Source of the DNA: a virus
IMG/VR virus record: IMGVR_UViG_3300032116_001139
Coordinates: 1-26,523 of that record
DNA length: 26,523 nt
Strand: one strand, 5' to 3'
Position numbers and translations under genes: made by a program. Below, piece after piece: positions 4,676 through 8,459 of this stretch. Position 1 is the stretch's first letter. Each line of letters starts with the position of its first letter. The notes under the pieces are model-generated. The model made no database searches. It was not told the DNA's origin and saw only the letters and a list, made by a program, of their open reading frames with translations.

Positions 4676-6496
4676 TTACTGAGCAAGTTGGTTTTGACGG
4701 GCTTCAGCGCCCGCGAGTGCGTTCGTCACCACAGCCGCCGGCGCTGCTGCGCGCTGCGCTGCGGCGCCTGTCGCGCGGATAGCGCCAGTGGCGCCTTGTA
4801 CTGCCCCTGCGCGGCGTTGCGCGGCCTCAAGGGCGAGCGCAGCCGTCTCGGGTTGCAGCATGTCAGTGGCGATTTCAATAGCGAGCTTGCGGTCAATTTT
4901 ACCGGCCAAACGCTTCAGGATCGCGTTGGCCACAGTCGTGACGCGGTTAAGCAACGTCGGCATCGTCACGCCGCCTGCCGCCTCGACCAAGAGCTGCGTG
5001 CCAGCCGTCTCAGCACTGGGGCCAGCCGGGCGTGCCGCGCGAGCTTGCTCGCGGTACTTTGCCTGGCGCGCCAAGTCCTTGCGGATGTTTTCGACGATAT
5101 TGACTTGATCGGGCGTGAGCACGTCGGAGAGCTTTTCATAGCGCGGCGCGCCCGCAGCAGCACGCTGGATCGTCTGCGGCGCGGCTTCAACAGCCCCCGC
5201 AAACGCTGCCGGGCGGAGTTTTTCTTCGCCTTGCAGCGCTGAAGTCAGCTTGCTCTCAAGGTACTGACCAACTTCCATCTGGTTAATTGGCTTGCTACGC
5301 GCCTGAAACGCGCTGCGTGCCGTGCCATATTCCGGCACTTGGCCTTCTAACCAGCTAATAAACTCTTTGCGCGTGCCGGCGATTTTGCTGGCTTCAACTT
5401 TGCCAATGCCATAAGTCGCGGGGTTTTGCACCAAATCATCTAGCGCCATTTTAACGTAGTGCATGTCGGCAGCGGTATAACTACCGCTTGCACCAAACGA
5501 CGCGCCTTCTTCTGCCGCCAAGTCTTTAGCGCGGTCAAACGCTTTTTTCACTGACGGACGCGATTGCAAGGCTTTAAGCGTAGCGTCTTCGGCGACGGCT
5601 TTGGCGCCAGCCTGCCCGTAAAGCAAATTAGCTTCAGCCGCGCGGGCCATTCTAGCCGACGTAAGCTGTGCCTCAGTGCCGCCCACCTCGCGGATAGAAG
5701 CCGCGCGAGCGGCGTCTTGGGCTTGTCGGCGTGCCATGTACGCGGAGGGCAGAATCTTCTCTGCCGACTCTTGCAGCGCCGAAAAGCGCGTCGCGCCTAC
5801 AGGCGCTGCGGCCTCGCCAGCCGTCGGCATAGCGCCCGGTACAATCTCAGGCTGCTGACGCAGCGCGTTAATAATCTCCGGCGCGCGGCCTTCAGCGGCT
5901 TCAAGTAGCACGTTGGCCTTACCGCCGATCGCGGTACGCTCTAGCGCGTTGATACCCGCGCGACCCGCAGCCGCCACCGGCGCTGTGATGACACGGGTGG
6001 GGTCCGTAACGCGAGAAACCGTGCCAAGCACTTGACCTGCACGTCCCGGCGCTGCCGCAGCACCAACGCCCGTGATGGTAGACACGTCGGCGGCAAAGCC
6101 AACGGGGTCTGTAGCAATGGTGTTCTTGAGCGCCTCGACGCTGCCATAACGGTCGCGGTAAACGCCGCCGACAGCGTTGGCCTTTTCAATAAACTCTTGT
6201 GCCTTGTCGGGTCGTGCCATCCATTCTTGCGGGATAAACCGAGCGTACGCGCCGGTCAGCACCTCGCCGAGTTGCTCCAACGTCTCGCGCGGACGCGTGA
6301 CAGCCGTGTAGAGGCCTTTAAGCATTTGCATCCCGCTCTCAGGGATGTTGCTAACGGCTTCCCGTCCGACCTGCGCCCATGTGCGCCCGGTCGGCATGAC
6401 ATCCTGACGCTGTTGAGCCAAGTACGCATCGGGGTCAAACGCCGGTGCGGTAGATGGCTTCTTTTGCGCCAGATACGCGTCTGGATCAAAGGCCAT
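4676..6496 (-). CDS. Putative internal virion / DNA ejection protein (606 aa)
   Basis: A large Ala-rich, mostly helical protein. It opens with two copies of AFDPDAYLAQ (residues 2-11 and 19-28), a short motif I recall from N-termini of phage injection or internal virion proteins. The middle has amphipathic and hydrophobic helices (for example TDPVGFAADVSTITGVGAAAA, about 130-150) and the C-terminus is almost entirely Ala/Arg/Gln helical. It is the third of three consecutive genes between the fibre module and the lysis cassette, where podophages such as P22 and T7 carry proteins ejected with the genome. No lytic transglycosylase motif is seen. The ATG at 6496 is preceded by GGAG about 10 bases upstream. 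Function is inferred from position and composition. Confidence 0.65.
   Translation of the reverse strand: MAFDPDAYLAQKKPSTAPAFDPDAYLAQQRQDVMPTGRTWAQVGREAVSNIPESGMQMLKGLYTAVTRPRETLEQLGEVLTGAYARFIPQEWMARPDKAQEFIEKANAVGGVYRDRYGSVEALKNTIATDPVGFAADVSTITGVGAAAAPGRAGQVLGTVSRVTDPTRVITAPVAAAGRAGINALERTAIGGKANVLLEAAEGRAPEIINALRQQPEIVPGAMPTAGEAAAPVGATRFSALQESAEKILPSAYMARRQAQDAARAASIREVGGTEAQLTSARMARAAEANLLYGQAGAKAVAEDATLKALQSRPSVKKAFDRAKDLAAEEGASFGASGSYTAADMHYVKMALDDLVQNPATYGIGKVEASKIAGTRKEFISWLEGQVPEYGTARSAFQARSKPINQMEVGQYLESKLTSALQGEEKLRPAAFAGAVEAAPQTIQRAAAGAPRYEKLSDVLTPDQVNIVENIRKDLARQAKYREQARAARPAGPSAETAGTQLLVEAAGGVTMPTLLNRVTTVANAILKRLAGKIDRKLAIEIATDMLQPETAALALEAAQRRAGAVQGATGAIRATGAAAQRAAAPAAVVTNALAGAEARQNQLAQ
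6413..6493 (-). repeat. Two-copy peptide-level repeat AFDPDAYLAQ
   Basis: Codons 2-11 and 19-28 of the 606-aa ejection protein encode the identical decapeptide AFDPDAYLAQ, 17 residues apart. Seven of ten codon pairs differ at the DNA level (GCC/GCG, GAT/GAC, CCA/CCC, GAC/GAT, TAT/TAC, CTG/TTG, GCG/GCT), all synonymously, so the peptide is preserved although the DNA copies have diverged. Confidence 0.95.
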
Positions 6497-6498
6497 AG

Positions 6499-7731
6499 TT
6501 AACGTGCTCCAAGTCGCTGCTTGATTTGCGCCGCGCGCGGGTCGTTCGGGTTGGAGTTAGCCCAGTTGAGGGCGTCCTGATCTTCGCGTGACAAATTAGC
6601 CGGTGCTGCGGCACGACCTTCAAACTTAACTTCAGGGTAGTAGTCTTTAACTTCTGGCTCTTTCTTAGCCAGCATGTCGCGCTCTTTGTTGTAGCGGTCA
6701 ATGACGTTTTGAGCAGACTTATCGTTGATGCGAATGATGCGTCGGATGGACTCAACCGACAGCGTTTCTTCGCCTGCCGCGATCTTCTTAGCAAACTCAC
6801 GGTCAGCATCTGAAAGGCCCGTACCGGCGCCAAACGCCGTGATGCGCTCGGCAACCTGCTGGCCAACGCCCGCGAAGTAAGCCTCCGTCGCCGACACGTC
6901 GATACCCGCCGCCTTAGCCACTGCCAGACGCGCGTTAGCCAACGTGCCCGAAATAAACTTCGGATCGTTGAGCAACGGCGCAAGCTGCTCAGAGTTTTGC
7001 AGCGAAGACACCGCCGACTCTGCTTTAGTGCGGAAGTCATCCAAGCGCTTGCCTGCGGTTTCGCCCAGCGTTTCGCTAAATTTCTTGCCGGCAGGCGGTA
7101 GGTTGACCGTAGTGCGAGCCGCACCCGCGCCCGCGATGCGAGCCTTCTGCGCCTCGACCGCAGCCGACATGGGTATAAACAGCTTGGCCCGTTCAGCCGG
7201 CGGAATCTGCGACAGAAACTGACCGCGCAGCGCAGCCTGAAGCTGCACGGGATCGTCCGGCAACGAGCTAACAGCATAATCGCGGAACTGCGGCACGATG
7301 GTGCCTTGCGCGATCATAAAGTCTAACTGGTCAAGCACTTGATCTTTGGTTGGGGGCGCTTCGCTATACGCTAGATCGCCCAGCGTCTTTTGGAATCGGC
7401 CATAATTTTCGTCGGCCAATTTGGCTTCAAGGCCGCGAACTTCCATACCTGTTTTCTCTGCCGTAGCGCGCTTGCCTGCGATGTCAGCAAACGAGGCGGC
7501 CATTTCGGCGCCAGGCTTGCCAAATCGCATAAGCTGATTCTGCGCCTCAGCCGTGGTCAAGTCAGGCGTAGCGGCAAGAAAGTTGCGCAGTTCGGCTGCG
7601 CGCTGGGCCTCCAACATAGCGGCTTGATCCGCCGCGCGCTGTCGAGTCGCCGCACGCCCTGCTTCAAGTCCTTGCACGTACTGGCCAAGGACGTTAACGG
7701 GCTCCAACTGAGTTGCACCGATGACTGCCAT
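6499..7731 (-). CDS. Putative ejection / internal virion protein (410 aa)
   Basis: A mainly helical, Ala/Arg/Glu-rich protein with no membrane segment and no recognised catalytic motif. The N-terminal third is a long helical stretch (GLEAGRAATRQRAADQAAMLEAQRAAELRN region, about 20-50). A Pro/Gly-containing break near NLPPAGKKF (about 210-218) separates it from a second helical half, and the C-terminus ends with acidic, Asn-rich repeats of helix caps. It lies between the DNA-transfer-like protein and the 606-aa protein and has a strong AGGAGG ribosome site 9 bases upstream of its ATG. By position and composition it is likely one of the proteins ejected with DNA, comparable in role to P22 gp20 or gp16, though I recognise no direct homology. 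Confidence 0.62.
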   Translation of the reverse strand: MAVIGATQLEPVNVLGQYVQGLEAGRAATRQRAADQAAMLEAQRAAELRNFLAATPDLTTAEAQNQLMRFGKPGAEMAASFADIAGKRATAEKTGMEVRGLEAKLADENYGRFQKTLGDLAYSEAPPTKDQVLDQLDFMIAQGTIVPQFRDYAVSSLPDDPVQLQAALRGQFLSQIPPAERAKLFIPMSAAVEAQKARIAGAGAARTTVNLPPAGKKFSETLGETAGKRLDDFRTKAESAVSSLQNSEQLAPLLNDPKFISGTLANARLAVAKAAGIDVSATEAYFAGVGQQVAERITAFGAGTGLSDADREFAKKIAAGEETLSVESIRRIIRINDKSAQNVIDRYNKERDMLAKKEPEVKDYYPEVKFEGRAAAPANLSREDQDALNWANSNPNDPRAAQIKQRLGAR

Positions 7732-7733
7732 GA

Positions 7734-8459
7734 TTACGGTCCTCCTGCGCCGGCTGCGGGCGCGCCGCCGGGCGGCTTATCAAAATATCCGCCCCGATAG
7801 AGGCCGTAGCCCGTAGCCGCCTGCCCAAGCGCCTGCGCCAGTGCGTTTGACTGCCCAAGATAGCCCGACGCGCGAGCCTGCCCAGCGCCCATCATCAGAT
7901 TGCCGATGTTAGAGCCCATCTGGCCGGCCTGCCCTGCGACCTGCTGTGCCGTCGCCAGACCGCCGCCGTAGAGGCTGCCGAGCGCGCCAAGGCGCGTGCC
8001 CATCAGCGCCTGTGCGCGATTAAAGGCATTCATGTACTCTTGCGAGCCCATATCTTGCCCATACCGCACACCAGCGCGGATAGCGCCGCCGCCAAGGTAT
8101 TGGCCCCGCGCCGACTGCATACGCTCCAGCGCCTTCTCACCTTCGGCCAGACGGAACGCATAGCCGGGATCGGCTTCCATTTGCGCCGCCGTAAACGGCG
8201 CGCCGATTGATCCGTAGCCGGGTGTGCCGGGCTCGCCGCCAATGCCTAACATGCGCATCAGCTCGTTCTGTGCGGCCATGCCTGATTGACGGAACGGCTC
8301 CTGAAGCTCTACCTGCCGTTCAAACGTCTCGCGCTGCAACTGCGCCGCTTGATCGGCGGCCTGCTGCTGCGCGCTGGCGGCCTTGCTGGCCCCCCGCGAC
8401 GCGACGGCACCGCCGATAACGGCACTGCCAAGGATTGCTGCTGCGGTTCCAATGGCCAT
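7734..8459 (-). CDS. DNA transfer/injection protein-like (241 aa)
   Basis: The N-terminus has a Gly/Ala-rich hydrophobic segment (about 4-24, IGTAAAILGSAVIGGAVASR), followed by a Gln-rich helix with the pattern QQQAADQAAQLQRETFERQ, then QEPFRQSGMAAQNELMRMLG. This arrangement is typical of phage proteins annotated as DNA transfer protein p32 or P22 gp7-like injection proteins, which enter the cell envelope with the genome. The rest is Gly/Ala/Gln-rich with repeated short helices, ending in a Gly/Pro tail. The ATG shares one base with the stop of the GNAT gene (TAATG). It is the first of the three presumed ejection genes. Confidence 0.72.
   Translation of the reverse strand: MAIGTAAAILGSAVIGGAVASRGASKAASAQQQAADQAAQLQRETFERQVELQEPFRQSGMAAQNELMRMLGIGGEPGTPGYGSIGAPFTAAQMEADPGYAFRLAEGEKALERMQSARGQYLGGGAIRAGVRYGQDMGSQEYMNAFNRAQALMGTRLGALGSLYGGGLATAQQVAGQAGQMGSNIGNLMMGAGQARASGYLGQSNALAQALGQAATGYGLYRGGYFDKPPGGAPAAGAGGP

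What the first reader, a model, noticed from the sequence alone, without database searches (positions are those of the whole stretch)
6413..6496. Duplicated N-terminal peptide AFDPDAYLAQ kept identical while its codons diverged
Both copies encode the same ten residues, but seven of the ten codon pairs differ synonymously. This indicates selection on the peptide rather than a recent DNA duplication. A repeated short linear motif at the start of a putative ejected protein suggests docking to the portal, a scaffold or another ejection protein.
Basis: partly seen in the sequence, partly recalled or inferred. Interest (0 to 1): 0.6.

Follow-up and report, generated by a model that had tools for sequence, protein, structure and literature searches.

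The report
Matched docking peptides joining phage ejection proteins
The doubled peptide FDPDAYLA at the start of one injected phage protein is half of a lock-and-key pair: the other half is the last ~30 residues of the injected protein encoded just before it, and phages swap both halves together, which explains how two parts of the DNA-injection machine recognise each other.

Summary
The duplicated AFDPDAYLAQ is real; 7 of 10 codon pairs differ synonymously. It opens the gp16-like ejection protein (B, 6496-4676) of a P22-type podovirus contig. In IMG/VR the same tag, usually doubled, opens many unrelated B bodies. Its partner is not portal or scaffold: it is the C-terminal ~30 residues of the gp20-like ejection protein encoded just upstream (A, 7731-6499), an alpha-hairpin ALxWAxxNPxDPRAxxIxxRLG. 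Of 333 non-redundant A/B pairs, 304 match in type over three tail/tag classes and 2 are discordant. Homologues of the window's own B body carry about ten tag types, each with its own A tail (60 concordant, 0 discordant), while portal and scaffold hardly change among the closest. Adjacency alone cannot explain this: in two lineages tail and tag have exchanged proteins, and in 13 loci they are separated by a gene or gap. P22 and Sf6 carry two different pairs. Published genetics fit: P22 with only Sf6 gp16 or only Sf6 gp20 is dead, both together work, and losing gp20's last 33 residues is lethal. I conclude these are cognate docking elements linking the periplasmic-tunnel protein to the membrane/muralytic ejection protein. 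Binding itself is inferred.

The parts
4676..6496 (-). B: gp16-like ejection protein, 606 aa, carrying the N-terminal doubled tag
   Evidence: no direct PHROG/Pfam hit. Tagged relatives match the P22 gp16 families phrog_770/29864/29117/21143 and a DNA-ejection family phrog_26400
6464..6493 (-). Tag copy 1, AFDPDAYLAQ
6443..6463 (-). Low-complexity linker KKPSTAP between the copies
6413..6442 (-). Tag copy 2, AFDPDAYLAQ, 7/10 codons synonymously different from copy 1
6499..7731 (-). A: gp20-like ejection protein, 410 aa
   Evidence: directly upstream of B; 8 of 45 relatives match phrog_2534, a P22 gp20 family; the window A itself has no hit
6502..6594 (-). C-terminal tail of A, LSREDQDALNWANSNPNDPRAAQIKQRLGAR: cognate partner of the FDPDAYLA tag
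   Evidence: helical hairpin with pLDDT 87-90 in a related pair
7734..8459 (-). gp7-like ejection protein, 241 aa (third member of the cassette)
   Evidence: phrog_598, as P22 gp7

Best explanation
The doubled FDPDAYLA is a docking tag. It binds the C-terminal ~30-residue tail (an alpha-hairpin) of the upstream gp20-like ejection protein A. A is expected to form the periplasmic conduit and B the membrane-side or muralytic part, as for P22 gp20/gp16 and T7 gp15/gp16; tag and tail couple them in the virion or during ejection. Two tag copies on flexible linkers would raise avidity or let one B engage two A subunits. Phages carry many mutually exclusive tail/tag types (D, N, K, P, S, I, W, L, Q, E, F and others) and exchange tail and tag together, so A and B bodies can be reshuffled while partner recognition is kept. 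Shown here: sequence pairing, joint switching, polarity swap, pairing without adjacency. Shown in the literature: P22/Sf6 gp16-gp20 incompatibility and the need for the gp20 C-terminus. Inferred: direct binding, timing, avidity.
For: (1) Type matching in both search directions: FDPDAYLA tag to WAxxNPxDPRA tail 111 of 115 scorable; that tail to the tag 76 of 79; GYxFxGGDP tail to PW[ED]xY tag 94 of 100; NPFDQFD tag to FDxKYG tail 97 of 113; 304 of 333 non-redundant pairs concordant, 2 discordant. (2) Anchored on the B body, not on tag or tail: 60 concordant over about 10 types, 0 discordant. (3) Polarity swap in two lineages with unrelated A and B: L385 and L569/588/602; A ends in PWEKY or GPWTQYQ, B starts with two GYxFxGGDP domains. 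(4) 13 loci with a gene or gap of 255-692 nt between A and B: 11 N/N, 2 K/K, 0 mismatched; B bodies homologous across types (L403 K vs L480 N, 33% over 851 aa). (5) Tags lying after an inserted domain, e.g. phage IME10, doubled NPFAQLE/NPFAQIE after an SLT domain, with an N tail on A. (6) Named P22-like phages 10/10 concordant; P22 vs ST160 and SPN9CC vs L have 80-94% identical bodies but both elements switched. (7) PMC10883804: P22 with Sf6 gp16 alone or Sf6 gp20 alone gives <10^4 PFU/mL, with both 5x10^10; Sf6 gp16 is still incorporated; gp20 lacking its last 33 or 66 residues is non-functional. (8) AlphaFold of an A-tail/B-tag read-through: hairpin pLDDT 87-90, tag copy 2 at 82 between linkers at 56-65.
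Against: No binding was measured, and no solved structure of these proteins was found by sequence. The AlphaFold test joins the two peptides in one chain; for the K pair the tags stay at pLDDT 56-65, not convincingly docked. Most tails and tags are neighbours in DNA, so many concordant cases are not independent of linkage. Types are assigned by regular expressions; 27 of 333 pairs have an unclassified partner. Pseudomonas phage F116 has a K tail but no clear tag. FDPDAYLA also follows an unrelated A family with a different tail in L005, L027, L093.
Confidence: 0.85

Rival explanations
1. Hitch-hiking: tail and tag lie within ~200 bp and are exchanged as one block by recombination in the flanking bodies, so they match without binding each other.
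For: In most loci A and B are adjacent; the switched region is short and contiguous.
Against: Polarity swap in two unrelated lineages; concordance with a gene or gap between A and B; tags after an inserted domain; the same pair on many unrelated A and B bodies; P22/Sf6 incompatibility.
Confidence: 0.07
2. The tag docks B to portal or scaffold, or is a packaging signal.
For: It is an N-terminal motif of an internal virion protein; the scaffold contains DIDPDAYADAL.
Against: Portal and scaffold stay 83-97% identical when the tag switches to IDPxKVxW; the scaffold DPDAY stretch does not follow the tag; Sf6 gp16 enters P22 virions but does not work.
Confidence: 0.04
3. Tail and tag each bind a common third partner, such as a host envelope protein, and so vary together.
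For: Joint variation does not by itself prove a direct contact; host YajC is discussed as a possible partner of the P22 conduit (PMC10883804).
Against: Near-identical bodies in related phages carry different pairs (P22/ST160, SPN9CC/L); polarity swap is hard to explain by two separate receptor sites; tail and tag differ in kind (folded mini-domain versus short linear motif).
Confidence: 0.05

Closest known systems
P22 gp20-gp16 (and Sf6 homologues) ejection proteins
   Same: Same cassette order gp7-gp20-gp16; P22 and Sf6 carry two of the pair types found here; their gp16 and gp20 are functionally incompatible one at a time and compatible together (PMC10883804)
   Different: In P22/Sf6 the N-terminal module is a single stretch, not a doubled short peptide; the contact residues were not known and no pairing code is described in the papers read
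T7 gp15:gp16-N 'molecular tape'
   Same: The N-terminal part of the gp16-type protein stabilises the C-terminal region of the gp15-type tunnel protein (PMC8954989)
   Different: The tape is residues 157-228 after the lysozyme domain; no repeated exchangeable tag or orthogonal tail types are described there
Docking domains of modular polyketide/non-ribosomal peptide synthases (own knowledge)
   Same: The C-terminus of one subunit recognises the N-terminus of the next; several orthogonal classes; includes short-linear-motif plus mini-domain pairs
   Different: Different proteins and system; no homology tested; here the short motif is usually doubled and the pair can swap polarity

Membership tests
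P22-type ejection cassette (gp7-gp20-gp16) | gp7 homologue (phrog_598) upstream | tested here: met
P22-type ejection cassette (gp7-gp20-gp16) | Second gene homologous to gp20 | tested here: inconclusive
   Window A has no PHROG hit; 8 of 45 A relatives match phrog_2534, which P22 gp20 also matches; position as expected
P22-type ejection cassette (gp7-gp20-gp16) | Third gene homologous to gp16 | tested here: inconclusive
   Window B has no hit; some tagged relatives match gp16 families phrog_770, 29864, 29117, 21143
P22-type ejection cassette (gp7-gp20-gp16) | P22-type portal, Hc3 (gp10), scaffold, coat in the same contig | tested here: met
   phrog_156, phrog_578, phrog_8865, phrog_283
Matched docking-element pair | Type of one element predicts the type of the other | tested here: met
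   304 of 333 concordant, 2 discordant; 60 to 0 in the B-anchored set
Matched docking-element pair | Pairing kept without DNA adjacency | tested here: met
   13 separated loci, 2 polarity-swapped lineages
Matched docking-element pair | Direct physical binding with cognate specificity | not testable with these tools
   Only single-chain models; genetic support from PMC10883804
Polyketide-synthase docking domains | Sequence or fold homology | not tested
   Analogy only

The most novel reading that the evidence does not exclude
A general docking code sets the order of proteins in tailed-phage ejectosomes: at least a dozen orthogonal tail/tag pairs, freely moved between tunnel proteins and any cargo (pore formers, lysozymes, transglycosylases), reversible in polarity and able to form chains of three proteins (L320).
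Probability: 0.5. Interest if true: 0.9.

Novelty: new variant of a known kind. Interest (0 to 1): 0.85.

Why it matters
Ejection proteins are among the most divergent phage virion proteins, and how the periplasmic tunnel recognises its inner-membrane partner is open. This gives residues: a C-terminal tail and an N-terminal tag that switch together. It explains the published incompatibility of P22 and Sf6 gp16/gp20, allows ejection proteins to be identified by their ends when the bodies have no detectable homology, gives a sequence rule for which A and B can work together, and makes the contact testable with short peptides.

Tried and rejected
Tag as scaffold mimic: the scaffold DPDAY stretch does not follow the tag type. 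Tag as portal partner: portal stays 88-99% identical among the window and its D- and I-type relatives. Tag as recent DNA duplication: codon identity between copies is near background. tblastn of the short tag and of NPFDQFD in named phages found nothing useful. An IMG/VR scan for the GTLNGR...EY tail returned 0 because my pattern lacked one codon; not evidence. First clustering of A included the tail, which inflated the apparent homology of A, so it was redone with tail and tag removed: 48 A and 45 B clusters. A first tail regex was too strict (replaced, whose listing stopped on an error after the counts were printed). The FDPDAYLA hits in cellular genomes that lie near an N-terminus are, but for one, in unrelated proteins without a second copy or a tail; NPFDQFD hits in L447/452/463/468/516 lie in a different protein without the matching tail. 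No paper in the library contains these peptide strings; subscription papers, including a 2011 comparative study of P22-like assembly genes (own knowledge), were not available.

Full report
OBSERVATION. The window is a 26.5-kb virus record with a P22-type late region: portal, scaffold, coat, Hc3 and a gp7-like ejection protein. B (6496-4676, minus) starts MAFDPDAYLAQKKPSTAPAFDPDAYLAQQ. Both copies, the coordinates and the seven synonymous codon differences are as reported. Over 66 loci with two exact FDPDAYLA copies, codon identity between copies is 0.46, against 0.40 between loci: the peptide is kept, the DNA is not.

HOW WIDESPREAD. Nearly all sit directly behind a gene A. With tail and tag removed, A falls into 48 and B into 45 BLAST clusters. 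The same pattern in 84,980 cellular genomes gave 64 hits, only one of them real.

THE TAG SWITCHES TYPE. Homologues of the B body, found with peptides from the body, carry many different N-terminal peptides, most of them doubled and alike within one protein: IDPxKVxW, GPWxKYQ, NPFDQFD/NPFAxFA, NRFxKYV, SWxxAPK, SFxEWxAAGKP and others. Each goes with its own C-terminal tail on A: FDPDAYLA with ALxWAxxNPxDPRAxxIxxRLG; IDPxKVxW with GTLNGRxVVEYxDGSxEYxD; GPWxKYQ with GYRFKGGDPxxxxxWEKV; NPFDQFD with LxxNPxLxxxFDxKYGxGxAxxxLG; SWxxAPK with FIDPNGxxRRKP. Classified by pattern, 60 loci of this set are concordant over about ten types and none discordant; the rest have an unclassified element on one or both sides.

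INDEPENDENT SCANS. From the D tail: 76 of 79 scorable next genes start with the D tag. From the K tail GYxFxGGDP: 94 of 100 with PW[ED]xY. From the N tag NPFDQFD: 97 of 113 upstream genes with the N tail. D-tag loci have the N tail adjacent in 0 of 201 and the D tail in 187. After removing near-duplicates, 304 of 333 pairs are concordant, 2 discordant and 27 unclassified.

LINKAGE IS NOT ENOUGH. (i) Polarity swap: in L385, A ends GGAKPWEKYRTPAAGGRSGK and B starts with two GYRFVGGDP/GFRFRGGDP domains; in L569/588/602, A ends GPWTQYQ and B starts GYRYTGGDP...GYEFLGGDP. The A and B bodies of the two groups show no similarity, so there are two lineages. (ii) In 13 loci, including cultivated phage Pam1, a gene or a gap of 255-692 nt lies between A and B; 11 are N/N and 2 K/K, none mixed, and some B bodies are homologous across the two types. 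(iii) Tags also occur after an inserted domain: in phage IME10 the N tag, doubled, follows an SLT domain, and its A has an N tail.

NOT PORTAL OR SCAFFOLD. In full contigs of relatives with the IDPxKVxW tag, portal is 88-96%, scaffold 83-97% and the gp7-like protein 75-85% identical to the window; the scaffold DPDAY stretch is present in both groups.

CULTIVATED PHAGES AND PUBLISHED GENETICS. P22, APSE-1, N7 and SPN9CC end gp20 with TSKSGIxFxVE and start gp16 with MKVTAxGKTFxFPxGT...DEYFAGQ; Sf6, ST160, HF4s, L, ST104 and phiv205-1 end gp20 with SNFSSLWGD and start gp16 with MAxAWKDVIASxxYQAL.... P22 and ST160 share 91.6% of gp20 residues 1-250 and 79.9% of the gp16 body but differ in both elements; SPN9CC and L likewise (94.3% and 90.7%). 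Some of these ten are near-identical to one another, so the number of independent events is smaller. PMC10883804 reports that P22 with Sf6 gp16 alone or Sf6 gp20 alone is non-functional while both together work, that Sf6 gp16 is still packaged, and that removing 33 C-terminal residues of gp20 kills function. Its authors concluded that gp16 and gp20 must interact; the present data point to the residues. N-type pairs occur in the E. coli K-12 phages Skarpretter and sortsyn, in Lumpael and in Proteus phage BPM-V3; a K pair in a Bradyrhizobium phage; a D pair in a Silvanigrella phage.

STRUCTURE. A read-through of A tail, stop and B tag (L263, D type) was folded: the tail is a helical hairpin (pLDDT 87-90), tag copy 2 reaches 82 while its flanks are 56-65, copy 1 is 67. 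For a K pair (L376) the tail is a small beta domain (86-87) but the tags are only 56-65. This is suggestive for D, undecided for K; joining the chains biases the test. No PDB chain resembles these proteins by sequence.

MECHANISM. By homology to P22 and published T7, P22 and DEV work (PMC8954989, PMC10883804, PMC10925440), A forms the periplasmic conduit and B the membrane-associated or peptidoglycan-cutting part; several B proteins carry SLT or lysozyme domains. The tail-tag contact would couple them. Because gp16 packages without a matching gp20, the contact is probably needed in the virion or during ejection rather than for packaging. The doubled tag may give avidity or bridge two subunits; natural single-copy cases (Skarpretter, Pam1) show that two copies are not obligatory.

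LIMITS. Binding is inferred. Types rest on regular expressions. Unrelated A proteins with another tail precede FDPDAYLA in L005, L027 and L093, and F116 has a K tail without a clear tag.

Noticed in passing
L320 4918-8751 (reverse-complement coordinates): Possible three-protein chain: A with a K tail, a lysozyme-like gene, a 222-aa protein with an N-terminal PWEKY tag and a C-terminal SDIQAIMRKYGTGR tail, then B starting YTPEQIYDAMRKADAAGD.
   Followed up: partly
L410, L421, L446, L454, L466, L467, L480, L481, L500, L505; Pam1 ON014753 11366-11515: A recurring arrangement with a small peptidase/lysozyme-like gene (or its remnant) or a gap of similar length between A and B; there the A tail carries an extra C-terminal extension such as GGxxxxGGFP.
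   Followed up: partly
L336 4011-4514: A phage lysozyme of 168 aa carries the doubled PWExxW/PWEQNY tag at its N-terminus, right behind an A with GYTFKGGDP: the tag can sit on a bare enzyme.
   Followed up: partly
L227 7597-8602 and L264 2392-4717: In these B proteins a Cys-rich CxNPxCxSxGxAHPNCxC segment precedes the FDPDAF/FDPDAYI tags.
   Followed up: no
L005, L027, L093: FDPDAYLA proteins behind an unrelated A family with a different helical tail (e.g. EEAEEFLKHHNLDADDIGKSRAKLKKL): possibly a second partner for the same tag.
   Followed up: no
L216, L226: D-like tail (YVEWAKANPSDPRAKLVLKKLNAE) with a different doubled tag, PEGLDEFIA/PEGLNEFIA: a variant that may show how types diverge.
   Followed up: no
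OP596615 (L727): Another doubled tag in a Bradyrhizobium phage, PAFDPTKPFE...PAFDSSQPFE, with A ending GHTYTLQPDGSYQ.
   Followed up: no
ON014753 Pam1_16: The tagged B of Pam1 is annotated 'mediator of RNA polymerase II', which looks like a misannotation.
   Followed up: no
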